The position numbers were made by a program, and so were the translations under genes. Positions 2,099-27,194 of a DNA stretch of 31,296 nt are shown one piece after another. Numbering within the stretch: position 1 is the stretch's first letter; every line of letters begins with the position of its first letter. The stretch lies in the IMG/VR virus record IMGVR_UViG_3300000553_000200, positions 1 to 31,296 of that record, one strand, 5' to 3'. Source of the stretch: a virus. Under the pieces are notes generated by a model, which saw nothing but the letters and a program-made list of their open reading frames with translations, ran no database searches and had not been told where the DNA came from.

Positions 2099-2463
2099 TA
2101 ACTTACCTCGCTACGACCATCTCCCACATCGCGTGATTTAACCACACGATTGTTCATGGCTTCGTATTGTTCAAAAGTTTCTAATACCACATTACGACAG
2201 ACAGCAGTAAACCATCGGTCTACTATGTCAGAGTCTGTATCTTTTGGAGACATCTGATATCCATGTCTAATTAAATCGGCAACAAATTTATCGTTCCAGT
2301 CTAATTCAAATGACCCATTTTGCATGTCGTTAGGGTCAACCTCCATGCTTATCATGTTTACATATGACTCGCCTTTTTCTGTGGCAATTTGTTTAGCTGA
2401 TTTTGCCGCTTCTTTTACCGCTTCTGCTGTTGTCTTTTTCTTAAATCTATCAAATATTCCCAT
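2098..2463 (-). CDS. Hypothetical protein downstream of queE
   Basis: A 121-residue protein starting MGIFDRFKKK. I chose the ATG at 2463 because it forms a TAATG overlap with the queE stop and has GGGGG five bases upstream. A longer form would start at 2475. The N-terminus is short and basic, then comes a helical Ala/Lys-rich stretch (residues 12-30). The C-terminal half contains DSDIVDRWFTAVCRN. No known domain. The tight coupling to queE suggests co-expression but does not show a role in deazaguanine synthesis. Confidence 0.6.
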   Translation of the reverse strand: MGIFDRFKKKTTAEAVKEAAKSAKQIATEKGESYVNMISMEVDPNDMQNGSFELDWNDKFVADLIRHGYQMSPKDTDSDIVDRWFTAVCRNVVLETFEQYEAMNNRVVKSRDVGDGRSEVS

Positions 2464-3317
2464 TAAGTCCCCCATGCATTCTTAAAAAGCGGCACTTGTA
2501 GCCTATCACTATACCTCAATCCACGTTTCATAGCTGCCAAGGCCACTGCTTTATTATTTAAAGAATATACGCTCTCTACACCGCCCACCGGCATCAAGTA
2601 GACATGACCTGTGAATCCTGCCTGCTGGAATTCATCTATGGCACGTTCGGCATCTGCGATATCTTCTTCTGTGGCCACGACGAATTTCAAGTAGGTAGTA
2701 CCATACTGTTCATATTCGCACACTACTTCTGGTTTAATAGCATCTTCCCACTTTTCGCCAGAACACGGAAGTTTAGCACTGACTGAAAATGTAACTTCAC
2801 GCCCATAGCTTTCATCAATGTAATGATCTAAATAATTTTTAAATTCTGGAGTAAGTTTCTGAGTACCATTTGTTTCAAAGGTAATTTCTTTCAACGCCTT
2901 CATTTTAGGATTGTTCAGTAAGTCCGGATAAGCACGTTGCCAACCTAGTAACGGCTCACCGCCTGTAATAACTAGGTGCTCGTCTCGCCACTCACCATGT
3001 GGCAAGATCTCCATGATACGAGCCACGATGGCATCGGTCTCCAGCATGGGACTGAGATGTTTGAATTCTGGCATCCATGATGCGAAACTGTCGCAGCCCG
3101 AAGAAACCAAAGGCAATTCCTCGTATTTTGCAAAAGGATAAAGCTGATGGATAGAGGCTACGTCCTCGGCTTCGGTACTCAATTTGCCTTTAGGCATACC
3201 AAAACCCTTACAAGAAAAATTGCAGCCAAACGTTCTAAGAAATACGCTTGGGACTCCCATATATCTTCCCTCTCCCTGAATTGAATAGAAAAGTTCCGCT
3301 ATCTTAATCTTGCTCAT
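2463..3317 (-). CDS. queE: QueE, 7-carboxy-7-deazaguanine synthase (radical SAM), phage variant
   Basis: Converts 6-carboxytetrahydropterin to 7-carboxy-7-deazaguanine (CDG), the ring-contraction step of 7-deazaguanine synthesis. The ATG at 3317 (MSKIKIAEL) has AGGA at good spacing. Family marks are FYSIQGEGRYMG near the N-terminus, RTFGCNFSC with the first two cluster Cys, LVITGGEPLL for SAM binding, and ETNGT. The usual third cluster Cys after CxxxC is replaced by Phe (CKGF), and about 40 residues later the text GCDSFASW matches the segment that normally carries the third Cys. An insertion therefore seems to split the cluster loop. At 284 residues it is longer than compact bacterial QueE. 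FolE, QueD and DpdA are in the same window. Confidence 0.85.
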   Translation of the reverse strand: MSKIKIAELFYSIQGEGRYMGVPSVFLRTFGCNFSCKGFGMPKGKLSTEAEDVASIHQLYPFAKYEELPLVSSGCDSFASWMPEFKHLSPMLETDAIVARIMEILPHGEWRDEHLVITGGEPLLGWQRAYPDLLNNPKMKALKEITFETNGTQKLTPEFKNYLDHYIDESYGREVTFSVSAKLPCSGEKWEDAIKPEVVCEYEQYGTTYLKFVVATEEDIADAERAIDEFQQAGFTGHVYLMPVGGVESVYSLNNKAVALAAMKRGLRYSDRLQVPLFKNAWGT

Positions 3318-3327
3318 ATTTTTAGTC

Positions 3328-3672
3328 CTATTTCTGTTTAAACATTTTAACATCTTCTACCGCATGATGTAAAGCTGATGCATAGTTCATGGCCTGTTGT
3401 TCAGTCATGCCGAGGACAGTTTCCGTTTTGACATAGCCCCGCGTCAGTAGTTGCCAAACATGATGCCATCGTGTTTTACTCCAAAAATTGGTTTTAACTG
3501 TCACATACACATGTACTTCTACATCGCTCTCGCTGGCTTCAATCCAGACTGTGTGCTCATGATCACTCTGACCACACTCGCAGGTGACTTGATACATTTT
3601 TGAGTCACCCCAATCATTGCGTTTCAATATGCCTGTAGCCGGAGTTTCTGCCAGTTTATTCTTAGTTTTCAT
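3328..3672 (-). CDS. Hypothetical protein with CxCG/His-rich N-terminal segment
   Basis: A 114-residue protein, unknown. After a 25-residue leader it has YQVTCECGQSDHEHTVW, a Cys/His set that could bind a metal ion, then a beta-rich stretch and a C-terminal helix. Two starts are possible. The ATG at 3672 overlaps the MazG-like gene by 11 bases but has no clear ribosome site. The ATG at 3597 (MYQVTCECG) has GGGGTGA seven bases upstream and would give 89 residues. It sits between the MazG-like gene and queE in a tightly packed operon. No function can be assigned. Confidence 0.6.
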   Translation of the reverse strand: MKTKNKLAETPATGILKRNDWGDSKMYQVTCECGQSDHEHTVWIEASESDVEVHVYVTVKTNFWSKTRWHHVWQLLTRGYVKTETVLGMTEQQAMNYASALHHAVEDVKMFKQK

Positions 3673-7044: not shown

Positions 7045-7566
7045 TTAGACTTCGTAAATAGCTGAGTTAGCACCATGTTCGGCACATTCGACTCTTACAC
7101 AATAACAACGATTATTAGTATTGGCTCTAATTAAAGCATCAGCAAAATAAAATGCGTGTTCGGCAAATTTCTCTGCGCCAACACCATCAAAGATTCTAAT
7201 CTCTGCTAGATCCAATGCTTCTAGTTCTTGGAACTTGGCTAAGTGTGGATCTTGCCGATCCAATGCTAACTTATGGTCAAAGTTATCTTCTAACCAGGCT
7301 TTGAGCTTCTTAAGTCCACCAAAGTCTACAGCCCAGTTTTTGTCATCTAATGAGTCACACCCAAATGTGAATGTAAATGCTAGACTGTACCCGTGTAGCA
7401 AGTGACAGTGACTGTGATCTGCATTTGGCTGCCTGAATACAGCACTGAGGCCAATGTTGTGTCCATAATGTTTTGTTGAATAATATTTTGGTTTGCGAGG
7501 TGCTGGCACCTCTACCATTTGCCCCGTTAAAGAAGCTTGTAACTGTTCTTCGTCATATTGAATCAT
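7045..7566 (-). CDS. queD: QueD-like 6-carboxytetrahydropterin synthase, variant metal site
   Basis: T-fold enzyme expected to turn dihydroneopterin triphosphate into 6-carboxytetrahydropterin, the QueE substrate. The ATG at 7566 has AGGAG seven bases upstream. A longer form from 7647 would lack a ribosome site and run through the promoter. Residues 51-60 read HSHCHLLHGY: the catalytic-type Cys (C54) and one zinc His (H58) match canonical CxxxHGH, but the last His is Tyr (Y60). The earlier SAAH-type zinc His is replaced in LSAVF. NFDHKL near 95-100 and CAEHGANSA near the C-terminus fit the family. Other His residues nearby (H51, H53, H55) may supply metal ligands. Confidence 0.8.
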   Translation of the reverse strand: MIQYDEEQLQASLTGQMVEVPAPRKPKYYSTKHYGHNIGLSAVFRQPNADHSHCHLLHGYSLAFTFTFGCDSLDDKNWAVDFGGLKKLKAWLEDNFDHKLALDRQDPHLAKFQELEALDLAEIRIFDGVGAEKFAEHAFYFADALIRANTNNRCYCVRVECAEHGANSAIYEV

Positions 7567-7585
7567 GCTGTTTCTCCTATGTTTA

Positions 7586-7614
7586 ATTTTAGCATAGGCA
7601 GCAGAATTTGTAAA
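7586..7614 (-). promoter_or_regulatory. Sigma70-like promoter upstream of queD
   Basis: Minus strand TTTACA (7614-7609), 17 bases, TAAAAT (7591-7586). Each hexamer differs from consensus by one base. The predicted start near 7579 leaves a 13-base leader containing AGGAG before the queD ATG at 7566, which supports that start. Confidence 0.65.
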
Positions 7615-7646
7615 GCGGGAATGATGCCCTGAGACCGCTTGAAACA

Positions 7647-7654
7647 TATTTATT
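7647..7654 (-). promoter_or_regulatory. Late-type promoter motif AATAAATA
   Basis: Minus strand AATAAATA, one base from the T4 late consensus TATAAATA and fitting the NATAAATA pattern. It overlaps the stop codon of the 67-residue gene and would add a second, late start for queD. Confidence 0.4.
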
Positions 7655-7853
7655 TTTTAGGGTAATTATTTTGTAATTTCCATATTTTTTCTTTGGCTTC
7701 GTTGAGGTCTTGCCTTAAACTGACATTTAGATTTTCAGCTATTGTCAATCTGTCTTGTAAGGCAGTATCGAGCACAATAGGTTTTGGTCTAGAATGATAA
7801 GCAATAGTTGTTCCAACAGCCCACCCAAGAATAAAAAGTAGTAAAGATATCAT
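7650..7853 (-). CDS. Small single-pass membrane protein with coiled-coil tail
   Basis: A 67-residue protein. Residues 2-18 (SLLLFILGWAVGTTIAY) form one hydrophobic segment. The rest is charged and heptad-like (LQDRLTIAENLNVSLRQDL), suggesting a short coiled coil. The short N-terminus suggests a membrane anchor with the coil in the cytoplasm or periplasm. It overlaps folE by four bases (ATGA). This layout is seen in spanin or holin accessory proteins and in many unnamed phage proteins. No specific function can be claimed. Confidence 0.55.
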   Translation of the reverse strand: MISLLLFILGWAVGTTIAYHSRPKPIVLDTALQDRLTIAENLNVSLRQDLNEAKEKIWKLQNNYPKK

Positions 7854-8611
7854 CTTGGGGCAAAATCCTGCTGTAGTTTAATATTGTCGAAGAACTCTTT
7901 CTTTGTTCCTATGTCTTCGTTAAATGCGCCCTTTAATACAGTGGTCTGTGTAAGACTAGAATGCGCCATTACGCCTCTATTTTCTACACATCCGTGAGTA
8001 GCCTGTATGTAGACTCCGACATTCTCGGAACCAGTAGCTCGCATTATTTCTCGAGCGATGTCGTTACATAACTCTTCTTGCAGTGTACCACGGCGAGCAC
8101 ACCACTGAGCGATTCTAGTATACTTAGATAGACCGATAAGTCTGTTGGCGGCAATAATGCCAATATAAGCCACACCAGTAACGGGTTGGTGATGATGACT
8201 ACACATACTGCGTAACTCACTACGTACAACAAGCATGCCTTCATATCTATCTTGACTATCATTTGGAAAAGCTGTTGCATCTGGAGCAGGATCATAACGA
8301 CCTGCCATGATTTCGTTGAAATACATTTTTGCCAAGCGCCGAGCTGTGCCTTGACTATTTGGATCTGTTTCTCGATCAATTAGTAGTGTGTCTAATACTC
8401 GTTCAAATGCTTCTGTAGCTTCATCGATCAAATGTTCTTTGGCGCTCTCATGCAAATAATCGCTGATATTATCTCCGGCCCAGAAACGTTTTTTATCCTG
8501 TTTCATTCTGGCGCGGAGGGCATCTGCCAAACTACTTTCTCGATATTCACCATCTCTGGTCATAGTATCTATAGCCATTCTCGATTCCATAAGTGTGTGT
8601 GTTTTAATCAT
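7850..8611 (-). CDS. folE: GTP cyclohydrolase I (FolE)
   Basis: Converts GTP to dihydroneopterin triphosphate, the first step of both folate and 7-deazaguanine synthesis. The C-terminal half holds the family core: MCSHHHQPVTG with zinc ligand C137 and following His, RLIGLSKYTRI, ARRGTLQEEL, and HGCVENRG with zinc ligand C208. The N-terminal 60 residues are less conserved. The ATG directly follows the upstream gene's stop and has a GGGGAAG ribosome site. With QueD and QueE it would give three consecutive steps of the pathway in one phage. At 253 residues it is slightly longer than the bacterial enzyme. Confidence 0.9.
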   Translation of the reverse strand: MIKTHTLMESRMAIDTMTRDGEYRESSLADALRARMKQDKKRFWAGDNISDYLHESAKEHLIDEATEAFERVLDTLLIDRETDPNSQGTARRLAKMYFNEIMAGRYDPAPDATAFPNDSQDRYEGMLVVRSELRSMCSHHHQPVTGVAYIGIIAANRLIGLSKYTRIAQWCARRGTLQEELCNDIAREIMRATGSENVGVYIQATHGCVENRGVMAHSSLTQTTVLKGAFNEDIGTKKEFFDNIKLQQDFAPR

Positions 8612-10184: not shown

Positions 10185-10213
10185 AGTATACACTACTTAT
10201 CAGTAAAAGTCAA
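10185..10213 (-). promoter_or_regulatory. Sigma70-like promoter for the glycosyltransferase
   Basis: Minus strand TTGACT (10213-10208), 17 bases, TATACT (10190-10185), one mismatch per hexamer. Start near 10178, leaving a leader of about 27 bases with GGAGG before the ATG at 10151. It lies back to back with the plus-strand late motif. Confidence 0.7.
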
Positions 10214-11052
10214 TGCTTATGAACAAATCAGAATTAAAAAATCTAATAGAAACTTATCCAAACCAAGTAACAGATTTACGATCTGTAATCAAGAACTACA
10301 TTAAAACTTGTTCAACAGACTATCCTTCAGATTGGCCTTTGTTTCAAAAAGCATTTCACGAATTATATTTAGAAGCAACGGTTGATCCTGTGTTGTGTCC
10401 AGTATGCCGTATCAACCCTTTGAGATTTACAGGACTCCGTAATGGATATACCAAAAATTGCTCTGCTTCTTGTAGGAATCGTAACCCAGAATTCTTGAGA
10501 AAATATAAGGATGCTTGTTTGGCAAAATACGGAACAGAATTTGCCTCTCAATCAACAACATTTAGAGATACAGTAAAAAATACATTACTTGAAAAATACG
10601 GAGCAGATAATCCGATGCGTATTGATAAATTTAAGAGTAAGTTAAAAGATGTATTACTTGAAAAATATGGGGTTGACAACGCTTCTAAATCAAATATTGT
10701 AACAGCTAAAATTAGAAAATCACGGATCGACTCTGGCAGCTGGGTAAGCGATGAAGATCGTACAGAGTTAGAAAAATATCGATTAGCAGTAAAGAAAATA
10801 ACTGCTAAATCATATCACGATCATTACTACAAAATCAATCCTAATAACTTAACTCGTTCAAGATATCAATACCATGTAGATCATATTTTTTCAGTAGAAG
10901 AAGGATTTAAACAAAAAGTTCCAGTCGAAGTTATTGGTCACTGGACTAATTTAAGAATGTTATGGCATTTAGATAATTCTATTAAAAATACTAAATGCCA
11001 TACCACCTTAAAACAACTACTTGAACAATACAAGTTAAAACGGTCTTCCTAA
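10213..11052 (+). CDS. Free-standing HNH homing endonuclease
   Basis: The only plus-strand gene recognised. A zinc-finger-like set CPVC (62-65) and CSASC (83-87) is followed by three KYG repeats (near 105, 128, 151; LLEKYGADN and LLEKYGVDN), which are typical DNA-binding modules of phage homing endonucleases. The HNH core is HVDH at 221-224, N246 in WTNLRML, and NSIKNTKC at 255-262. Such enzymes cut a related genome and spread by repair. It lies between two unrelated minus-strand genes with its own late promoter, and its end overlaps the next gene by 18 bases. Start at 10213 or 10219 is undecided; neither has a strong ribosome site. Confidence 0.85.
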   Translation: MLMNKSELKNLIETYPNQVTDLRSVIKNYIKTCSTDYPSDWPLFQKAFHELYLEATVDPVLCPVCRINPLRFTGLRNGYTKNCSASCRNRNPEFLRKYKDACLAKYGTEFASQSTTFRDTVKNTLLEKYGADNPMRIDKFKSKLKDVLLEKYGVDNASKSNIVTAKIRKSRIDSGSWVSDEDRTELEKYRLAVKKITAKSYHDHYYKINPNNLTRSRYQYHVDHIFSVEEGFKQKVPVEVIGHWTNLRMLWHLDNSIKNTKCHTTLKQLLEQYKLKRSS

Positions 11053-14336: not shown

Positions 14337-14551
14337 TTTATTTCCACTTTATATTCGCAACCACACCCTGTGTTTAACATATCTTTAATGCTGGAGTTTT
14401 TGTCGATTGGATTCCAAACAACAAAATTATTAACTACTTCGCCTTTTCGACAGGATTTACATATATGACTGTACAATTCAGCTTTTAATTGATCTACTGA
14501 GTCAAAGTTTTTCTGCCAAATTGGAAGAGACAATTTAATCAGTTTTATCAT
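14333..14551 (-). CDS. Small Cys-rich protein, possible zinc ribbon
   Basis: A 72-residue protein with HICKSCRKG (CxxC) and C-terminal NTGCGCEYK (CxC). The four Cys could bind one zinc ion. The N-terminus is short and basic (MIKLIKLSLP). It lies directly after dpdA with ATGA overlaps on both sides. A role with DpdA is possible by position only, and the text shows no catalytic motif. Confidence 0.55.
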   Translation of the reverse strand: MIKLIKLSLPIWQKNFDSVDQLKAELYSHICKSCRKGEVVNNFVVWNPIDKNSSIKDMLNTGCGCEYKVEIK

Positions 14552-16149
14552 GCAAAAAGTACGTTAAATTGACTGGTTGCGTTTTTGCTTTTCTTGCCTG
14601 TATAGCCACGTGTGCCTACGATGTCCATCCAATACCTATCATAGTATTCAATGATAGCTAGAGCATCTTCTTTATCATTGGCAGCAAATATAGCATCTAC
14701 TATATCTTTAAATCTAGCTCTATCGCCTCGTTCATTGACCATCATTCTTGGCCATGATCCATTGTCGTACGCTCGATTGGCACGTTGCACTGCTTCCAAG
14801 TGAAGCCATACATTGTGTGCCATTAGTAAGGCGTAGCTAAATGAATCCCAGCTGGTTTTACCTTCTTTGCCTATTTTGTTCAACATGCCCGGAGCATACA
14901 CACAAACATCTTTAATCAGTAATTTGGCACTCACAGGGCTTTCATCAAAATGATCAACTAACTTGTCCTGTAGTACAGCATCTCGATATGTACGTGTATC
15001 ACTGGAATATTTTTTGTCATCGGCAATAGAGTTCATACGATAACACCATTTGCCATCATGGGGTAGATCTATGTGATGATAAACTTGACCGTTGGCAGTG
15101 GCTAAAAACGGACTGGCGCAGTCAAATGATATGGTAAAACTAGGATTCACATACTTACGAACAGCACGTTGTATATCTGTTAGTAACATGGCCCATTCTA
15201 ATTTGCTTGTGCCTAAAAAGTGCATCCAATCCTGGTGTCCCTCTTGTAGCAAGCCGTCAAATTTCAATGCCACTAGTCGTTTTAATACTAGGTGTATGTC
15301 ACACATGTTCTGTCCGCCCATAGCCCATCCATTAAATGGCCTGTCATACTTAGTGGGGTCGCAGAAGTCTTTCATTTTTTCATACCAGTCATCTGCTTGT
15401 GTATGATTTTCGCCCTGTAATACATTTAAAAACTTACAAGCTCCAGAACGATGCTTGATCCAGTATTCATTATTGTATTTGGTAGCTTCAACGGCTTGAT
15501 CATATGATTCGATGCCTGTAGCTTTCATACCCGCTGGACTACGCGATACCCAAGCCGGAATATCCAATACCATTCCGTAATCCATATAAGTGTCCATCCA
15601 AGTTAATACTTGGCTACGTTTTTTCTGTGCGGCGTCTAATTTATCTTGATAGATTTTTACATGATCAACTTTGACGTATTTGATATTGCCATTTTTGTCA
15701 TGTTTAGGTTTGCCTGTTTTATCTAAAGCCGGAACATGCTCGATGCCTTTGGCTTTGGCTTCTGCTATTTTGGCTTTAACTTCTGCTCCAGTCGGATCTC
15801 GCCATTCACCTTCCCAAACACCTTTACCTATTTGAAATCCACCTGAGTCACCCAAGATAAAAGTATTGGCTCGATCTCTGCCACGAACCATGTCTTCGTT
15901 CCAGTCTTGTTTAGTAGTGTCTAGATTGGCATGCCCGGCACTGTACAAGCTCCATTTGTATGGAAATAATCCCTGCTGAGCATTTAGCCAGTTAAGCATT
16001 TCCATATCTGGTATTGCTTGTGGCATGCGTGATTTTGGCACACCTGCTCCGCTACGCTGTTTACCAATATAAGTGGCATAAAATCCACTGAGTGCTGGCA
16101 AAAATAATGCGTAATTGGATTGTTTAGCTGTTAAATTGTCTTGGGTCAT
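14548..16149 (-). CDS. dpdA: DpdA-like 7-deazaguanine DNA transglycosylase
   Basis: A 533-residue TGT-like enzyme, expected to exchange guanine in DNA for a 7-deazaguanine base. TGT-family marks are ILGDSGGFQ with the substrate-binding Asp at 101, VLDIPAW near 194-200, NVLQGE at 242-247, WAMGGQ at 275-280, and SFDCASP at 341-347, which matches the nucleophile Asp segment of TGT (D343). The zinc-binding C-terminal Cys cluster of tRNA TGT is not seen, and the presence of FolE, QueD and QueE supports a DNA rather than tRNA role. It is in the sliding-clamp operon, with ATGA at both ends. Assignment to the DpdA group is firm; the subgroup is not. Confidence 0.85.
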   Translation of the reverse strand: MTQDNLTAKQSNYALFLPALSGFYATYIGKQRSGAGVPKSRMPQAIPDMEMLNWLNAQQGLFPYKWSLYSAGHANLDTTKQDWNEDMVRGRDRANTFILGDSGGFQIGKGVWEGEWRDPTGAEVKAKIAEAKAKGIEHVPALDKTGKPKHDKNGNIKYVKVDHVKIYQDKLDAAQKKRSQVLTWMDTYMDYGMVLDIPAWVSRSPAGMKATGIESYDQAVEATKYNNEYWIKHRSGACKFLNVLQGENHTQADDWYEKMKDFCDPTKYDRPFNGWAMGGQNMCDIHLVLKRLVALKFDGLLQEGHQDWMHFLGTSKLEWAMLLTDIQRAVRKYVNPSFTISFDCASPFLATANGQVYHHIDLPHDGKWCYRMNSIADDKKYSSDTRTYRDAVLQDKLVDHFDESPVSAKLLIKDVCVYAPGMLNKIGKEGKTSWDSFSYALLMAHNVWLHLEAVQRANRAYDNGSWPRMMVNERGDRARFKDIVDAIFAANDKEDALAIIEYYDRYWMDIVGTRGYTGKKSKNATSQFNVLFA

Positions 16150-17310: not shown

Positions 17311-18294
17311 CTAAAATTCAAATAATGATTGGAATGTATTTTCTGTATTGGTAGCACTGGCAAGATCCCAATCTAGTACGCTGAGTAGATTGTCAATCTT
17401 TTGATCTACAATAGTGGCTTCCATCAAACTGTCATCAAATGGCAGCTCTTTAAACCAGTCTGGAATACGTTGTTCGTCTGTAGGGTAGCCTATGCTAGTC
17501 CAGCCTAGTGGATTTTGTTTTAATTTACATACGATAGTTTTCATACCGTCAACTATAGCCATAGAATAGTTGTCCCCGTTCATTCTACGCAAGTTATTCC
17601 AATTAAGCGCCGCACGTACATGTCCTGGCATATTAGCCTTACCTTCAGCTTCTTCTTTTTTACCATACATAGTAAGATTGTTAACTCGCTTAGGAGTGCC
17701 TTTTTCCCAAGCCGGACGTTGTGCGAATGCATACTTGAATTCACGTATACGTTCCACAATTTCTTCTCGACCAGTTCCAGTTAATACTTTTTCCAATATC
17801 TCATAGAGAAAATCTTGTATCACTTTAGGAGTATCTGAACGTTTTAAATCTAAGCCCATGGCTTTTATCTTGCCTGGCTTACCATCCACATCCAATCGTT
17901 TTCCTTCTAAATCATAAATCAACACAGCATATCTTTTCTTTGTGATGAAAAGACTATTTGATCCAATCAGCTCACGGCCAGCTTTGATTAACTCCCCTGC
18001 TTCTCTTGGACAATGAAATGCCTGTTCCATAAATGCGGGAAAACTATCATTTACTTGATCAGAAATGGAATCATATAACTGTGTACACATGTCTTTATTC
18101 CACGACATTTTACCGCTGGAAACATCATCTTTAAGCATGGGCCAAGCAGTAAAGTAACAACTGTCAGTATTATGAACTAATATATCATTGGCGAAAAAAA
18201 AGGGGTCTTGATCTGCTATACTTAGATCATATACATAATCATCGACCTCACCTAAACACTCTATACTCTTTACTGCTGTTCTTGTAATATCCAT
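17311..18294 (-). CDS. Split intein C-part plus DNA polymerase B C-terminal part
   Basis: The first 42 residues are an intein C-terminal segment: EVDDYVYDLSIAD and FFFANDILVHN, ending in the splice-site HN (18169-18294). The extein starts T-DSCYF, which rebuilds polymerase motif C YGD|TDS when joined to the upstream half. Then come FITKKRYAVLIYD (the KxY region) and thumb sequences. The end is FQSLFEF, like the gp45-binding tail of T4 gp43. AAGG eight bases before the ATG shows independent translation, so the intein must act in trans. Extein length (285) plus the N-part (584 plus a few residues) gives about the size of T4 gp43. Confidence 0.85.
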   Translation of the reverse strand: MDITRTAVKSIECLGEVDDYVYDLSIADQDPFFFANDILVHNTDSCYFTAWPMLKDDVSSGKMSWNKDMCTQLYDSISDQVNDSFPAFMEQAFHCPREAGELIKAGRELIGSNSLFITKKRYAVLIYDLEGKRLDVDGKPGKIKAMGLDLKRSDTPKVIQDFLYEILEKVLTGTGREEIVERIREFKYAFAQRPAWEKGTPKRVNNLTMYGKKEEAEGKANMPGHVRAALNWNNLRRMNGDNYSMAIVDGMKTIVCKLKQNPLGWTSIGYPTDEQRIPDWFKELPFDDSLMEATIVDQKIDNLLSVLDWDLASATNTENTFQSLFEF

Positions 18295-18485
18295 TTAGCT
18301 ACCTTGTCTACTGTTTCTTGTTTATTAGTGAGAAAATCGTTTTCCCATACCACATAAGTCTTAAATCCAAACGATTCGGCTGTTTTTAATTTTAACATAT
18401 CACTATTCCATATGTCAACCGCTAAATTTCCACGTACTGATGCTGTTGGTAGATAAAATTTTGGATTAGCATGCCAGGCAAATAA
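18270..18485 (-). pseudogene. Vsr-like (EDxHD-type) homing endonuclease remnant
   Basis: A frame of 71 codons with no start, between the two polymerase halves. It begins after a TAA at 18488-18486 and ends at 18270. It reads AWHANPKFYL, then VDIWNSDMLKLKTAESFG and TYVVWENDF. These match the C-terminal half of Vsr-like homing endonucleases (WHxNPKxY ... W..D..K...A...G... WE.D). The N-terminal catalytic part is gone. It overlaps the N-part stop on one side and the C-part ATG on the other. It is likely the leftover of an endonuclease gene that once lay in the broken polymerase gene. Confidence 0.65.
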
Positions 18486-20568
18486 TTAGATCTGTATTCA
18501 ATATATCAGTGGGTTTTACTTCTAATAGCATACCATCTCGATCGACCATTATGCTGTGATCTTCGGTTACTTTAACTGATTTTCCGTTTTCTAAAGTAAT
18601 TTTGTATAACTTCTTTTTTGTTTTATGTCGCATGATATAAGATATCTTACTCATAACAGTAGCATCTTCGTATGCGTTAAATCCAATGACCTTAGCCGAT
18701 GACCAAGTTGCATACTCTTTCTCCCCAATCATACTATGCTCTGGAGTTTGTCTAAATAGATCTGCGATGGTTATTTCGCCTGAATCGGTTTTGATAAGTG
18801 TATCGCCTGTCACACTGTCGCCGTATACAATAGCATCACCCAAGTGATCCTTAACACCAGTAATACATTCATTGATATAGCCAGCCATGTGTCTGGCAAT
18901 GCTACGTCCTGTTAGTGTAGTTGACTGCCCAATACGTTTGTCAAAGAATCTACAATGCGGATTCAAAATAGCACCGTATAAGGAATTTAAATTAATTTTT
19001 TTCACTAACTGTCGTTTGTCCCAAAAGGCAATTTCTTTGGGGTCAGTAGCTTCTTTCTTTTTAGCCTGTAGTTCTTTACGTTCAGCGTACCAACGTTCAA
19101 GTAACCCCGGAACCACACCTTTGCGTTCATACGTAACTATAGTTCCATTAGCAGTCAACATCCACGGCTGATTGCTGTTAAAAATCATGTGCCAAATGTC
19201 TGCGGCACTGTGTACAGTACTGTCTCCATCTTGCCAGTCTACTGTTATTTCTGTACCTTTTTGTTGTTCCATAACTGCCGTATACTCTAGCGAGGCAAAT
19301 ACTCCTTCCCAAGCTGCCGCAAATGTCTTGCCCCTGTCAACAATTTCATTTATGTACCGGTCAGTCATTACAGGACGTAGTTGTCCGACGACAGTTTCCA
19401 TTCCCATATTTAATGCTCGTATAGCCGATGGATACAGGCTGTTAATGTCAACTGCGCCTACCCATTCATGCATGCCTTTTTTTGGATAAGCTACATAAGC
19501 TCCGGCTGCCGCGGTATCGTCATCTGTCAATCTTTGTTTGCGATTGGGCACTACTAGCCCACGTTCATGTGCTTCTACGATAATAGCCTGTTCTGTAACA
19601 GCCACGGCTCCCATGGTGGTCGGAATCAACACAGTATTGGCATGCGCCAATTCATTGGCTAAGTCTATAAACTTTAACTTTGAATCTAACTTATTAAGCA
19701 ATAACGTGTCGTGTCTATTATATTCAATAAACTTTTTAAAGTTTTGATTATATAATTGATCTAGCGTACCTTCATAAGCTGTTTTATGTTCATTAAGCTC
19801 ATATTCACAAATGGCGTCTAAACTATAGCTGTGCCGTTCTTCGTAAGTGTATTTTCTATACAACTGCATGTAGTCCATGTGTACACGTCCGACGATATCA
19901 TATGTAGTATTGGTAGCCCCAAACCTATCAAATTCTCGTTCTTTAGGATACTGACCCCACAAACAAAATCTGCGTGTGTCATCTTTGCTGAGTACACGTT
20001 TGATACGATTGACTGTATAAGGTATATCATATCCCTCGCTGTTCCATCCAGACAACACGTCGGCATCTTCAATTAAATCCAAGAAAGTTTTCAGCATATC
20101 TGCTTCATGCTCAAAAACTATACAGTTACTGAAATCAGCAGTTACTTCCTTTGCTGTTTCTATAGTCATATGTTTGGGCGGAATAGTCAGTGTTACTAAT
20201 TGATCTAACCACTGTAGATAAACTGAAATGGCAGTTATGGCATTGAATGGATCAGTAGTGGGTGAATAACCGCGTTCTTTATGGAAGTCTACTTCAATGT
20301 CAAAAAATGCCACTTGCAATTCAGGAGCATCAACTCCCTTGTAGTTTTCTTCTAAGCAACGGAATATGGGATTGATATCGGCTTCGTATAGCTGTTTGCC
20401 TTTTTGTATGGCAACTTCGCGCCTAAATTCTTTGGCAGTACGTGCACTAAATCTACTAACAGGTGTACCATAGATAGATTTAAATTTGCCCCTAACATCA
20501 TCATAGTAAAATATATAATCCGCTGGATACTCTTTATAAACACGTTCTCCGTTGACTCGCTCAACCAC
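18466..20568 (-). CDS. DNA polymerase B N-terminal part plus split intein N-part
   Basis: Family B replicative polymerase, 3' exonuclease and palm. Exo I is FFDIEVD (D90, E92), Exo II SGWNSEGYDIPY, Exo III YNRHDTLLL; motif A is DINSLYPSAI, motif B KKINLNSLYG, and the frame reaches motif C at AIVYGD. There the intein starts with Ser (18816): SVTGDTLI, block B KVTEDHSIMV (TxxH), 116 residues, ending with a TAA at 18466. Start is uncertain: GTG at 20568 is the first usual codon, but coding-like sequence (NISYIDSLYDREHDRI) runs about 18 codons further up to near 20622 without ATG, GTG or TTG. An out-of-frame ATG lies at 20629. Confidence 0.85.
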   Translation of the reverse strand: MVERVNGERVYKEYPADYIFYYDDVRGKFKSIYGTPVSRFSARTAKEFRREVAIQKGKQLYEADINPIFRCLEENYKGVDAPELQVAFFDIEVDFHKERGYSPTTDPFNAITAISVYLQWLDQLVTLTIPPKHMTIETAKEVTADFSNCIVFEHEADMLKTFLDLIEDADVLSGWNSEGYDIPYTVNRIKRVLSKDDTRRFCLWGQYPKEREFDRFGATNTTYDIVGRVHMDYMQLYRKYTYEERHSYSLDAICEYELNEHKTAYEGTLDQLYNQNFKKFIEYNRHDTLLLNKLDSKLKFIDLANELAHANTVLIPTTMGAVAVTEQAIIVEAHERGLVVPNRKQRLTDDDTAAAGAYVAYPKKGMHEWVGAVDINSLYPSAIRALNMGMETVVGQLRPVMTDRYINEIVDRGKTFAAAWEGVFASLEYTAVMEQQKGTEITVDWQDGDSTVHSAADIWHMIFNSNQPWMLTANGTIVTYERKGVVPGLLERWYAERKELQAKKKEATDPKEIAFWDKRQLVKKINLNSLYGAILNPHCRFFDKRIGQSTTLTGRSIARHMAGYINECITGVKDHLGDAIVYGDSVTGDTLIKTDSGEITIADLFRQTPEHSMIGEKEYATWSSAKVIGFNAYEDATVMSKISYIMRHKTKKKLYKITLENGKSVKVTEDHSIMVDRDGMLLEVKPTDILNTDLIICLAC

Positions 20569-20795
20569 GTGTATTCTGTCATGTTCACGATCATATAAAC
20601 TGTCAATGTAGCTGATATTAATTCTCCATTTTAACTAATACTAATAAATACTTACGTAGATACACTTTACAGGCAAAATATTCTCCAAATGAATTGAATA
20701 CAAAAGCAACCAAAACTTTCGGAGAATTATATTCAGATACTATTGCTCGAGAAAACAAAATCAAGCAATATTACAATTTAGTCACTAAATGGGGC

Positions 20796-22727: not shown

Positions 22728-25700
22728 TTACTGCTGGTCTTCATTGTGTGGTTCCCACGAGTAATCAACATTTACTACTGTTTTGTTTTTCTTGGCATAG
22801 TAAGCTTTGGGATCAAAGTTGTCTTTGGTAACTTTAATTGTTTTGTTTGTACCGTCGTCAAAATATATTTTCCAAATATAATACTGCCCAGGTTTCAACT
22901 CTTTATCTTTTTTAATAGCTTCTGCCAATGCCCGTTCTAAATTTTCTACTCCTTCGCAATGCCATTTACGCAAAGCCTTGTTGATACGACTATTTGGATC
23001 ACGTTTGGTTTTTGCGCCGGCACGATGTTTTTTCATGCCTTTCATGCGAGCACAGAAACTCTTACGACGTTTAGCCGCTTTACTGCCTTTTTTAAGTTTG
23101 CTAGGTTTGGTTGTCACGGCTGTTTGTAACTTGCTGCCAGGATGGCTACGACGATAACTGTCGACACCTTTTTTATTTAATCCGCCGTTTTTATTTTTGC
23201 CTTTGCTAGTCTGCCAAGCTTCGGCTTCATTTAACAGAGATTGATCATCCATATCATCATACATTTCCCAGATGACATCTTCGTCTATCTGATTCAAACT
23301 GGCTAGTTCACTGACCATGGCTTCTATCATGTCAAATTGTTTATTAGCTTCGTCATCTTCTCTGATGGGAAGACTGACATCTCTATCTTCTATATCGTCC
23401 CCGTACTTTTCATCTTCTATTTTTTCTATAACTCTCAGTATATAGTTTCTATAATTATCACCAATTATTGTTTTAGGTATAGCTATCTTTTTTATTTCTG
23501 TTCCACGTTGTGTAATAGTGGCAATTCTAGTTGTAATGTCAAAATCTATTCTATAAGGAGGAATAACCAGACTAGTGGGAATATCAATTCTTTCGGGCGG
23601 TCTTCCATAGGCTTCTGACACACCTTGGTCTTTGACTAATCGTAATGCTGTAGCCGGTAAGTTATTTGCCTGACCGCCATCGTCTAGGTCAATGTAATAG
23701 GTTTTTGGGGCGCCTTTGTGTGCGCCATGTTTAATTTCTCTAATCCAACCTGTCTTACCAGCGTGTTCGCCTTTGACAACTTTTACCTTTTTGGCTAGAC
23801 CCTTGCCTTCCGCCACACCTTGCTCAACGCTTTCTTCCATTGCTCCGTATGCAGATTCTTCAAAGTGCTTAATATGTGCTCTTAAAATACCTTTGAATTT
23901 TTCTAAATCATCTTTAGAAAATTCTTTAATACCTCCGAACTCACTTTGATAAGACCTTTCTCCTTGACCTTTTCCGTAATTAAACCAATTATTAAATTTA
24001 ATGTCAGGATCAAGTCGTTCTTCAAAATATTCTAATCGCTTATGTGTATCACGCACTATTGTATTAAATGGTGAACCTATACTATAAGCACCGGGGGCAT
24101 TATCTAAAAAACCATAAACTGTGCCTAATGTTTGTGCAACACGCTTGTTTGATACATTCTTAACACCACCAACATATCCGGCACCACCTGCCACAGCCGC
24201 CGCACCCAAGCCTTTTAAGAATCCTCTACGGTCTACTTCTTCTAATGAGCCTTCCGCCACACCTTGTTCGTTAGTAGTGCTATGTGACTGCATAAGCTCA
24301 CCGGAACGCTTAACATAGTTGTTATATAATTGTGCTAGTTTTTCTACGGGAATAGTTTTTCCAGTGCGAGCGTTAATATCTCTGGCCCAGCCTTGAATAA
24401 ACTGCTCATCCGATGTGCCCATTGGCCAGCTTGCTACATTATCATTGAATGTTTGTTTAATAACATCCATGATGCCTTCCGCCACACCTTCCTTCTGATA
24501 TACTATAGCCAGTTCTCTCTCACGGATTTGTCTTTCCAAATCTTTTATCCGACGAGCAACACTCGGTTTCTTGGCCAATAACGGTTTCAGTGTTTCAATC
24601 TTATTCTTAAGCCATTGTATTTCGTGATGTGCTTGACTGGCTGAACCACCAAACCCACCTCGTGTAGTTGAGCCTTCCGCCACACCTTGTTTTAGACAAT
24701 GTTTTAGTTCTGCTACTGCTTCTTCGTATGAATCATACCCAGACAAATCTTTACCACTAGCATAATGCTTCATGTAATACTGACCAACACCTGGGCTCGA
24801 TTCACGGTCAATACCGACTTCGCCCACTGGCTTGCCATTCTTCTTAAACACTTTGCGTTGTTGGTCTGCATGACCTTCTGCGACACCTTCGGTCTTTTCA
24901 TAATCTTCTGGTTCAGCGGGTGGTTCACCTACTATTCCTATGTACTTTATATTGGCTACTGGTTCTTTGTATTTGTTTTCAATATAGCTTTCAACGTCAC
25001 AATCGGCGTCGCAGGTAAATTTAATCTTTTTACCAGAATCAAGCGTGACTATCCACTGTTCACGTTCGTAGTCACGCAAGCTTTCTGCTACAGCTATTTG
25101 TTTTGGTTTTTTGATTTTGATAGGATTAGTTCTAGGTCTTTTGATTAAACTACTTCCCAAAGTATGACTAGATACGTCGGCAGCTTCTTGCAGTTTTTTG
25201 TACTTTAATCTGGCAGCGTTGTACACAGCGGGATTTTTGTCAAAGTTTTTATACTGCTTTTGCTCCATTGCCCAAGTTATGAAATTTTCTGGTAATGTGG
25301 TACTTTCTTCGCACCCACCAACAGATTTTTTACTGAATTCTGTTGGAGCAGGATCTGTTCCTTTTAAGTAACCACCAAACTTGGGACCAGTAGGTTTGTG
25401 TGCAGCCCATGACATACTAGCTTCGTCTACTTCTTTGTCATTTAGGTTTTTTTCTATGTATCTACGCATAGCTTCTTGACGTTCTTTAAATGGCAAATGT
25501 GCTATACTTTTTAAAAACTCAAGACGTGATTTTTCCAAATTAGCAAGATGTTGTCTAAATTTATCTGCTCTGCTGATTTCGTTTATTTGTGAATCCAACT
25601 GCTTCATCAACTGTTCAAACAAATCAGGTTGAACAGGTTCTTTTTGATCCAATGGCAATGGCATCTGCGGACTATTTTTCAATTCTTCTTCTTCTTTTTC

Positions 25701-27194
25701 TTTACGTTGTTGCTCGTACGTGGGATAATAATTTACATATTTCTGTACCACAGGCTGATGTAACCATGCCAGTGTGTTTTCTTTATTGGAAAATATTTGA
25801 TATATTTTATCAGGAGATTCCCCTGTACTTTTCATTATAGCTATCAAACTCATAACGCCAAATATATAATTTCTCTGTAGTGTAAGACTTTTATTTGGCC
25901 CAAATTGCCACGTCACTCTCTGTTGTGCTGGATTTAACCAAGCTCTGCTAAGTTCGGTAACATTGGCACGACCTTGATTAATGTCGTCTTCTTTGTAAGG
26001 ACTAAAACTGGCAGGTCCTAAATCTTCGTTTATTGATTCTGTCATGGCTGATTCTTTTCCTAATAATTCACCTGCTGTTAGATTCAAGTCTGGTATCTGT
26101 ATAATACTATCCGGATCAAACTCATCTATCCCCGGAATATACTTGGGAGTGGCCGAAGCTACTGGTGTGGGTATATTTGGAGCATTGATAGGTTCTGTTG
26201 CGCCAATTGAAGGCGCGGTTGTTTGATTCTTTGGTGAACCTAAATATGCGGTGCTGGGCAGATCTTTTAAAGACTGTGCTATTTGCCCAAATGGAGATGC
26301 ACTAGCTGACTGAGGAACGTCTTTACCAGTCGGAGATTGTTTTTTGACTTTATCAGATTGGGAGCCTACATTGTCAATGTCAGTCCCGTTTCTCATAGCT
26401 GGAGATGCTATCCATCCGCTTGAACTAGTTGGCACTGACGCAGCAGTGGCTGCCTTAGCTGTTGTTTTGGCAGTGGCAATAGTTGGCATTTGTTTTATCC
26501 TATTCAAATCAGGATTTTTGTTGCCTTTGGCATAATCAGTGGCCGCATGAGCCGCTTGTACAGGATCCAGTCCCATTTTAGCTACTTCTCTGTTAAATGC
26601 TTGGAAACGTTCTTCTTGATCTTTAAAACGTTTTTCTTTATCGGTTAAATCTCGATTGGTGCGATCTATTTTTTTATAAAGTTCATCTTTGGCTTTTTCA
26701 AGAGAATCAATTTCTTTTTGCTGAGCCGCATTTTCTTTGTCTTGCTGATAAGCATGAGCTACAATAGCCTCCTCATCACTAAGACCTGGGAATTCCTGTC
26801 TATATCTTCTTAACGCACTTTTTACATCATCACGCTGGCTGCCTTTATCACTGTTGTTGTTTTTTTCGCTTTTGCTGTAAGTTTTTTTCTTTTCACTGTC
26901 AGCTTCTTTTAGTGAGTCTTGTGACGAATTCGTGTACTCTTCTAAATCTTTTTCTTGGTTCCAATGATATCCCTTGTACTTTTCTGGATCATAGGGCTTT
27001 ACTTGACTGTTAGATTTATTCTGTTTGGCATAAGCTGAAGCTCCCATAGCTTTGCGTGTGCTGATATCTAAGTGTTTGAATCGAGGATTATTTACGTAGT
27101 CATTTATGCACTGCTGTTGAGTGGCATATTGTTTGGCCTCTTCCATGTCAGAAGCTTCATTCATTTCATTTAAGATTAAATCAAATAAGTTCAT
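22728..27194 (-). CDS. 1488-residue modular polyprotein-like protein with GVAEG junctions
   Basis: Unknown giant protein. Regions: an N-terminal MNLFDLILNEMNEA; a coiled coil (about 155-210); a low-complexity A/S/T/P linker (about 230-350); a middle with SWAAHKPTGPKFGGYLKG (about 590-610). Then come short modules separated by (E/Q)GVAEG at 769, 836, 902, 977 and 1125 and QGVSEA at 1190. One module begins with DRRGFLKGLG (988-997), like a Tat signal; another has a KOW-like VKVVKGEHAGKTG. A very basic segment (about 1326-1412: KKGSKAAKRRKSFCARMKG) may bind DNA. A small domain appears twice, at about 705-752 and 1437-1480. VAE|G fits the T4 prohead-protease rule, so it may be cut during head maturation. 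Confidence 0.7.
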   Translation of the reverse strand: MNLFDLILNEMNEASDMEEAKQYATQQQCINDYVNNPRFKHLDISTRKAMGASAYAKQNKSNSQVKPYDPEKYKGYHWNQEKDLEEYTNSSQDSLKEADSEKKKTYSKSEKNNNSDKGSQRDDVKSALRRYRQEFPGLSDEEAIVAHAYQQDKENAAQQKEIDSLEKAKDELYKKIDRTNRDLTDKEKRFKDQEERFQAFNREVAKMGLDPVQAAHAATDYAKGNKNPDLNRIKQMPTIATAKTTAKAATAASVPTSSSGWIASPAMRNGTDIDNVGSQSDKVKKQSPTGKDVPQSASASPFGQIAQSLKDLPSTAYLGSPKNQTTAPSIGATEPINAPNIPTPVASATPKYIPGIDEFDPDSIIQIPDLNLTAGELLGKESAMTESINEDLGPASFSPYKEDDINQGRANVTELSRAWLNPAQQRVTWQFGPNKSLTLQRNYIFGVMSLIAIMKSTGESPDKIYQIFSNKENTLAWLHQPVVQKYVNYYPTYEQQRKEKEEEELKNSPQMPLPLDQKEPVQPDLFEQLMKQLDSQINEISRADKFRQHLANLEKSRLEFLKSIAHLPFKERQEAMRRYIEKNLNDKEVDEASMSWAAHKPTGPKFGGYLKGTDPAPTEFSKKSVGGCEESTTLPENFITWAMEQKQYKNFDKNPAVYNAARLKYKKLQEAADVSSHTLGSSLIKRPRTNPIKIKKPKQIAVAESLRDYEREQWIVTLDSGKKIKFTCDADCDVESYIENKYKEPVANIKYIGIVGEPPAEPEDYEKTEGVAEGHADQQRKVFKKNGKPVGEVGIDRESSPGVGQYYMKHYASGKDLSGYDSYEEAVAELKHCLKQGVAEGSTTRGGFGGSASQAHHEIQWLKNKIETLKPLLAKKPSVARRIKDLERQIRERELAIVYQKEGVAEGIMDVIKQTFNDNVASWPMGTSDEQFIQGWARDINARTGKTIPVEKLAQLYNNYVKRSGELMQSHSTTNEQGVAEGSLEEVDRRGFLKGLGAAAVAGGAGYVGGVKNVSNKRVAQTLGTVYGFLDNAPGAYSIGSPFNTIVRDTHKRLEYFEERLDPDIKFNNWFNYGKGQGERSYQSEFGGIKEFSKDDLEKFKGILRAHIKHFEESAYGAMEESVEQGVAEGKGLAKKVKVVKGEHAGKTGWIREIKHGAHKGAPKTYYIDLDDGGQANNLPATALRLVKDQGVSEAYGRPPERIDIPTSLVIPPYRIDFDITTRIATITQRGTEIKKIAIPKTIIGDNYRNYILRVIEKIEDEKYGDDIEDRDVSLPIREDDEANKQFDMIEAMVSELASLNQIDEDVIWEMYDDMDDQSLLNEAEAWQTSKGKNKNGGLNKKGVDSYRRSHPGSKLQTAVTTKPSKLKKGSKAAKRRKSFCARMKGMKKHRAGAKTKRDPNSRINKALRKWHCEGVENLERALAEAIKKDKELKPGQYYIWKIYFDDGTNKTIKVTKDNFDPKAYYAKKNKTVVNVDYSWEPHNEDQQ
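23614..24890 (-). repeat. Dispersed 17-bp coding repeat (GVAEG junctions)
   Basis: On the plus strand CCTTCCGCCACACCTTG is exact at 23806-23822, 24250-24266 and 24673-24689, has one mismatch at 24475-24491, and is more diverged at 24874-24890 and 23611-23627. Each copy encodes (Q/E)GVAEG (or QGVSEA) in the same frame. Distances are about 180-445 bases, setting module sizes of 65-148 residues. Conservation of the bases, including synonymous positions, suggests recent copying or recombination between modules. Confidence 0.85.

What the first reader, a model, noticed from the sequence alone, without database searches (positions are those of the whole stretch)
17311..20568. DNA polymerase gene broken by a split intein at motif C
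Seen: the N-half ends AIVYGD then a 116-residue intein N-part; the C-half starts with a 42-residue intein C-part ending HN, then TDSCYF. Joining rebuilds YGDTDS, the catalytic site. The halves are separate genes with their own starts, 171 bases apart. Known: this is the fractured-gene arrangement described for split inteins with free-standing Vsr-like endonucleases. Polymerase activity would depend on trans-splicing.
Basis: partly seen in the sequence, partly recalled or inferred. Interest (0 to 1): 0.8.

Follow-up and report, generated by a model that had tools for sequence, protein, structure and literature searches.

The report
Split-intein phage polymerase, endonuclease lost
A bacterial virus encodes its DNA polymerase as two separate proteins that a protein-splicing element (a split intein) almost certainly stitches together at the active site; the kind of arrangement is already known, but this copy has lost the selfish DNA-cutting gene that once spread it, and relatives show the same loss happening many times.

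Summary
A family-B (T4 gp43-like) phage DNA polymerase is encoded as two ORFs on the minus strand (N-half 18466-20568, C-half 17311-18294). They carry a 116-aa Int-N and a 42-aa Int-C inserted exactly between YGD and TDS of motif C. The joined exteins match intein-free relatives end to end (869 vs 869 aa). AlphaFold2 and Foldseek place the intein next to the Aes123 PolB1 split intein, which is proven to trans-splice. The interpretation needs one correction. No free-standing Vsr-like endonuclease is left here: the 171-bp gap holds only its last ~67 codons. A close relative (L006) has the full ~317-aa endonuclease; the window differs from it by a 792-bp deletion at a CTGGCA repeat. Window and L006 inteins are 99% identical in DNA while their exteins are ~77%, a strong signature of recent homing. 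Among 62 distinct intein sequences from IMG/VR, 42 are split with endonuclease, 16 split with it deleted, 4 contiguous; one contiguous case (L097/L099) looks like re-fusion of a split intein. Published precedents: Aeromonas Aes phages, Pseudomonas MIJ3/PA5oct, Tenacibaculum PTm1. It is a new member of a known kind. Splicing itself was not tested here.

The parts
18466..20568 (-). N-half gene of family-B DNA polymerase: N-extein (exonuclease and polymerase up to motif C ...YGD) plus Int-N; true start probably upstream at ATC 20614-20616
   Evidence: ORF; Pfam DNA_pol_B_exo1, DNA_pol_B, Intein_splicing; start comparison
18817..20568 (-). N-extein, 584 aa from the GTG, ends AIVYGD
   Evidence: alignment to intein-free relatives L007, L010, L012
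18469..18816 (-). Int-N, 116 aa, Ser1, block B TEDH
   Evidence: PDB 9HTH E=3e-19; AlphaFold2 pLDDT ~90-95
18472..18477 (-). CTGGCA: 6-bp repeat at the junction of the 792-bp endonuclease deletion
   Evidence: alignment to L006
18270..18476 (-). Remnant (about 67 codons plus stop) of a Vsr-like homing endonuclease gene; its last 25 bp overlap the Int-C start
   Evidence: 99% DNA identity to the 3' end of the intact endonuclease in L006
18302..18305 (-). AAGG ribosome-binding-site candidate of the C-half, inside the endonuclease remnant; A/G-rich stretch kept in the deletion variants inspected
18169..18294 (-). Int-C, 42 aa, ends HN
   Evidence: Pfam Intein_splicing C-part; AlphaFold2
17311..18168 (-). 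C-extein of the DNA polymerase, 285 aa, begins TDSCYF (+1 Thr)

Best explanation
The phage makes its replicative polymerase as two polypeptides. Int-N and Int-C bind each other, form a HINT fold, and splice in trans: Ser1 acyl shift, transfer to Thr+1, then Asn cyclisation. This joins YGD to TDS and restores motif C. Inference from anatomy, homology and selection; about 0.85 likely. The intein arrived by homing of a unit 'Int-N / free-standing Vsr-like endonuclease gene / Int-C' that cuts intein-free alleles at the conserved motif C codons; the horizontal transfer is shown, the cleavage is inferred. Afterwards a 792-bp deletion between two CTGGCA repeats removed most of the endonuclease gene; shown. 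Only its 3' end stayed, because that end carries the ribosome-binding site and start codon of the C-half; inferred from the pattern across relatives. The element is now immobile on its own but must keep splicing, because its host protein is broken at the catalytic centre.
For: Exact insertion in motif C with intact empty alleles. Splicing residues Ser1, TxxH and terminal Asn conserved in 72/72 relatives with both parts, penultimate His in 69. Confident HINT fold for both parts; best PDB match 9HTH, the fused Aes123 PolB1 split intein (TM 0.86 by target, E 6e-15), an intein that trans-splices (PMC11923092). Purifying selection on the intein between two endonuclease-less copies: dN/dS 0.08 Int-N, 0.03 Int-C. 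Homing: window vs L006 intein 99% vs extein ~77% nt; the same pattern in L104/L110, L097/L099 and others. Deletion: 792 bp with 6-bp repeat; the same state in L002 and L003; an independent 762-bp deletion at CCAAAAT in L005. Repeated loss on the intein tree: 14 changes, at least 7 forced by starred branches. Endonuclease assignment: Vsr structures are the best sequence (E 0.012) and fold matches (prob 0.99).
Against: No splicing assay. Block F has Pro where proven relatives have His (QDPFFF vs GNHNFF in Aes508), although this is constant in the family. The window vs L002/L003 remnant divergence (8/193 bp) does not fit one simple deletion followed by clonal descent. Vsr similarity is weak statistically. 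Endonuclease cleavage of the motif C target is not shown.
Confidence: 0.85

Rival explanations
1. The two halves work as a non-covalent two-subunit polymerase; the intein parts only dimerise (or are inert) and splicing is weak or absent.
For: Phage 25 gp43A and gp43B co-purify and have polymerase activity without an intein (PMC2988022). Atu_ph07 polymerase is split elsewhere with no intein.
Against: Here the break is inside motif C between two catalytic Asp-bearing residues, with 158 aa of intein attached at the active site. Splice-junction residues are invariant or nearly so in 72 relatives and the intein is under purifying selection.
Confidence: 0.08
2. The polymerase is a decaying pseudogene, or the break is an assembly artefact.
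For: An endonuclease fragment lies in the gap; the contig is metagenomic.
Against: Same structure in L002 and L003. Between these and the window the extein parts differ only by synonymous changes; dN/dS is 0.04-0.09 for exteins where it can be estimated (L005, L006, L007).
Confidence: 0.02
3. Primary endonuclease-free split intein: the locus never had a functional endonuclease, and the 3' fragment is a regulatory leader for the C-half.
For: The deletion variants inspected retain the stretch that carries the C-half ribosome-binding site.
Against: L006 has the intact gene with 99% DNA identity on both sides of the deletion and a 6-bp repeat at the junction.
Confidence: 0.02
4. The deleted form is itself spread as a non-autonomous element, mobilised by the endonuclease of co-infecting phages.
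For: Two haplotypes of the same deletion differ in the intein tract while exteins are nearly identical. Trans homing of a defunct intron by a neighbouring endonuclease is cited for T4 (reference title in PMC2988022).
Against: No donor/recipient series seen that requires it; repeated slippage at the same repeat or ordinary recombination explains the haplotypes too.
Confidence: 0.1

Closest known systems
Aes123 / Aes508 PolB split intein of Aeromonas phages (PDB 9HTH; PMC11923092; NC_019543)
   Same: Split intein in motif C of a phage family-B polymerase; Vsr-domain ORF between the halves in Aes508; Ser1; same HINT fold; trans-splicing shown for Aes123
   Different: Inserted two codons further on (DTD|S, +1 Ser); cysteine-less (the window intein has Cys); 38% identity in Int-N; endonuclease present in Aes508
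Split PolB intein of Pseudomonas phage MIJ3/PA5oct (PMC6892783)
   Same: Split intein plus endonuclease ORF in PolB; closest named polymerase relatives (52%); similar blocks B and N4, no His in block F
   Different: Site DTD|S with +1 Ser; a different 560-aa endonuclease, intact and annotated HNH; 42% identity in Int-N
Salicola phage SCTP-2 PolB mini-intein
   Same: Same insertion site YGD|TDS
   Different: Contiguous, not split; 40% identity; ends KN
Tenacibaculum phage PTm1 split polymerase
   Same: 'intein-containing split DNA polymerase precursor', 'VSR endonuclease', polymerase in a row
   Different: DTD|S site, 34% identity in Int-N, endonuclease present
Contiguous PolB inteins of DPANN archaea at the same site (L350-L352)
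   Same: YGD|TDS insertion, homologous Int-N
   Different: Contiguous and several hundred residues long; 31-39% identity
Fractured genes of Dassa et al. 2009 (NAR 37:2560; paper not held, known here from title, citations and memory)
   Same: Split intein halves on separate ORFs flanking a Vsr-like endonuclease gene, in relatives
   Different: In the window the endonuclease is deleted

Membership tests
Split inteins | Int-N and Int-C encoded at the ends of two separate ORFs | tested here: met
Split inteins | Splice-site chemistry residues (Ser/Cys1, block B TxxH, penultimate His, terminal Asn, +1 Ser/Thr/Cys) | tested here: met
   S1, TEDH, HN, T+1; block F His absent
Split inteins | HINT fold formed by the two parts together | tested here: met
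   AlphaFold2 with the linker read through: parts at pLDDT ~90, linker disordered; Foldseek top hits all inteins
Split inteins | Trans-splicing activity | not testable with these tools
   needs co-expression
Fractured gene with Vsr-like endonuclease | Gene interrupted at a conserved site, intact alleles elsewhere | tested here: met
Fractured gene with Vsr-like endonuclease | Complete free-standing endonuclease ORF between the halves | tested here: not met
   Only a ~67-codon 3' remnant in the window; full in L006 and about 40 distinct relatives
Vsr-like / EDxHD homing endonuclease (for the relatives' ORF) | Vsr-type nuclease domain | tested here: inconclusive
   Best but weak hits: Vsr 1odg/1vsr E 0.012, 1cw0 prob 0.99 E 0.05; Pfam MTES_1575 below cut-off; conserved SNLE, YDIKH, EFNGDYWH motifs
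Aes123 PolB1 cysteine-less split inteins | Absence of Cys in the intein | tested here: not met
   Cys in Int-N (IICLAC) and Int-C (ECLGEV)

The most novel reading that the evidence does not exclude
Fractured genes are not an end state but part of a cycle. A split intein with its own endonuclease invades; the endonuclease is repeatedly deleted while the split persists (the window); sometimes a larger deletion re-fuses the halves into a contiguous mini-intein (L097 from an L099-like ancestor: 952-bp deletion, 98% identical intein, the old Int-C start kept inside the fused ORF). Split-to-contiguous reversion by this route would be a new step in intein evolution.
Probability: 0.55. Interest if true: 0.6.

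Novelty: new member of a known kind. Interest (0 to 1): 0.45.

Why it matters
An essential replication enzyme is broken at its catalytic centre, so the phage depends on protein trans-splicing. The locus and its relatives catch a selfish element at every stage: empty site, mobile split intein with endonuclease, endonuclease-less split intein, contiguous mini-intein. Some pairs of inteins differ almost only by one deletion. That makes endonuclease loss and re-fusion of fractured genes directly testable. The family also supplies about 70 new natural split and contiguous inteins with Ser1 and mostly Thr+1, of possible use as ligation tools.

Tried and rejected
Assembly artefact (rejected: L002, L003). 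Empty linker between the halves (rejected: endonuclease remnant). HNH identity of the lost endonuclease (rejected: no HNH hit; Vsr best). Atu_ph07, annotated as two DNA polymerases, as a second case at this site (rejected: split elsewhere, motif C intact). Phosso long polymerase as an intein carrier (rejected: YADTDSSYF uninterrupted). Solved-structure search with the endonuclease from two sequences gave only noise; the 19-sequence profile found Vsr. Relaxed selection on the remnant as proof of decay: window vs L002 shows excess change, but half is synonymous and it is too much for drift at the extein rate, so left unexplained. Dassa 2009 could not be read, and no readable paper was found that places the Nanoarchaeum equitans split PolB site.

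Full report
OBSERVATION. On the minus strand the window encodes a family-B DNA polymerase in two ORFs. The N-half (18466-20568) ends AIVYGD followed by 116 aa of Int-N; the C-half (17311-18294) starts with 42 aa of Int-C ending HN and continues TDSCYF. The gap is 171 bp. Pfam finds DNA_pol_B_exo1 and DNA_pol_B in the exteins and Intein_splicing in both intein parts. Joining the flanks gives 869 aa, aligned without a gap at the junction to intein-free relatives such as L012 (869 aa, 88% identical). L007, a closer relative, has the empty site with the same codons.

THE GAP. Frame +1 of the gap reads HANPKFYLPTASVRGNLAVDIWNSDMLKLKTAESFGFKTYVVWENDFLTNKQETVDKVAKWILQEQQ* and its stop lies inside the Int-C coding sequence. 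In L006 the same reading frame continues upstream into a complete ~317-aa ORF between the intein halves. Aligned to L006, the window lacks 792 bp, with CTGGCA at both deletion ends. Flanking DNA within the intein is 99% identical. The deletion removed the N-terminal zinc-finger-like part, the repeat region and the conserved SNLE, YDIKH and EFNGDY residues. It also removed the original N-half stop (CLAT-TAA in L006); an out-of-frame TAA now ends the N-half after CLAC, so Int-N kept its length.

WHAT THE LOST GENE WAS. A 19-sequence profile of the intact ORFs finds E. coli Vsr as the best solved relative (E 0.012). The AlphaFold2 model (pLDDT 88.7) has Vsr as its best two Foldseek hits (prob 0.99 and 0.97, E 0.05-0.07). 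Both are weak in E-value, but concordant. In Aeromonas phage Aes508 and Tenacibaculum phage PTm1 the ORF in the same position is annotated with a VSR domain.

MOBILITY. Window vs L006: intein and remnant 99-100% identical per 100 bp, exteins about 71-83%. Synonymous distance is 0.014 for Int-N and saturated for the N-extein. Across 3403 pairs, 43 have Int-N more than 10 points more similar than the adjacent extein, including L104/L110 (99.1 vs 71.5%) and L097/L099 (98.5 vs 76.2%). Horizontal transfer of the intein between diverged phages is therefore shown; cleavage by the endonuclease as its cause is inferred.

FAMILY SURVEY. Scans of IMG/VR with Int-N and Int-C and with the endonuclease, de-duplicated: among distinct sequences from the intein scans with both parts visible, 42 are split with a full endonuclease, 16 split with it deleted, and 4 contiguous. 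Most sit at YGD|TDS; five sit at DTD|S. Detection depends on the peptide patterns used, so these are not population frequencies. On the intein tree (quick search) the deletion state changes 14 times, at least 7 forced by starred branches, and contiguity 5 times, at least 4 forced. Deletion ends differ between lineages: window 792 bp at CTGGCA, L005 762 bp at CCAAAAT, L104 856 bp at TT. The intein-free side is common too: most of the 80 loci found with the polymerase have an uninterrupted YGDTDS.

WHY THE 3' END STAYS. In intact relatives the endonuclease stop overlaps the Int-C start, and an A/G-rich stretch just upstream of ATG/GTG lies inside the endonuclease gene. The deletion variants inspected keep that stretch and start, L140 with a divergent upstream sequence. 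Losing it would silence the C-half. This is inference from pattern.

RE-FUSION. L097 is one ORF through the intein...LIICL-KGKK-MDIERTT..., and L099, its sister (96% SH-aLRT), is split with a full endonuclease and reads KGKKMDIERTT at its Int-C start. They differ by a 952-bp deletion with AAAA at the ends and 98.3% intein identity. Since the endonuclease and the split are shared with most of the surrounding tree, the contiguous form is most simply derived. The opposite direction is not formally excluded.

MECHANISM. Ser1, TxxH and terminal Asn are present in 72/72 relatives with both parts, penultimate His in 69, and +1 is Thr in 67. With the linker read through, AlphaFold2 gives a confident HINT fold for both parts and a disordered linker. 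The best PDB match is the fused Aes123 PolB1 split intein 9HTH, also the best sequence match (E 3e-19). The Aes123 intein trans-splices, at about 30% efficiency in its native form (PMC11923092). Window vs L005, both without endonuclease: dN/dS 0.08 and 0.03 for the intein parts. Trans-splicing is therefore the best-supported mechanism, but it was not assayed. Non-covalent assembly is the main rival, because phage 25 gp43A/gp43B do this without an intein (PMC2988022).

COMPARISON. Split PolB inteins with an endonuclease between the halves are published for MIJ3 (PMC6892783) and annotated in Aes508, AS-gz and PTm1. MIJ3, Aes508 and PTm1 have them at DTD|S, two codons downstream. The window's site, YGD|TDS, is shared with SCTP-2 (contiguous) and with contiguous PolB inteins of DPANN archaea. 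The window is a new member of the phage PolB split inteins and an endonuclease-less derivative of the fractured-gene arrangement; it fails the 'complete endonuclease ORF' criterion itself.

VERDICT. Observation confirmed, interpretation partly supported, kind already known. The added value is the loss of the endonuclease, the homing signature and the series of states in relatives.

Noticed in passing
window 20614-20616 (-): Probable non-canonical ATC start codon of the polymerase N-half (GGAG-AATTAAT-ATC-AGC-TAC, reading ISYIDSLYDRE), also in L002, L003, L004, L008, L009; relatives have ATG, GTG or TTG there.
   Followed up: partly
window 18270-18476 (-) against L002 3918-4121: Window and L002/L003 share nearly identical exteins and the identical 792-bp deletion, yet the remnant differs at 8/193 bp while the window's is almost identical to intact L006. 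Either the same repeat recombined twice or the intein tract was replaced by recombination.
   Followed up: partly
window 10213-11052 (+): Free-standing homing-endonuclease-like gene (phrog_3339 'homing endonuclease' E 1e-12, DUF7487) on the + strand among minus-strand genes.
   Followed up: no
window 2463-3353, 7045-7647, 7850-8611 (-), perhaps 14548-16149 (-): Radical SAM (QueE-like), 6-pyruvoyl tetrahydropterin synthase (QueD-like) and GTP cyclohydrolase I genes; the 533-aa ORF without a Pfam hit could be a DpdA-like transglycosylase (guess). Suggests 7-deazaguanine DNA modification.
   Followed up: no
window 22728-27194 (-): 1488-aa ORF with several recurring GVAEG segments; only small matches (DUF6321, a TAT-signal-like stretch at 987-1006).
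   Followed up: no
L187, L193, L206, L208, L209 against the rest: Homologous split inteins with homologous endonucleases occupy two sites only two codons apart (YGD|TDS and DTD|S).
   Followed up: partly
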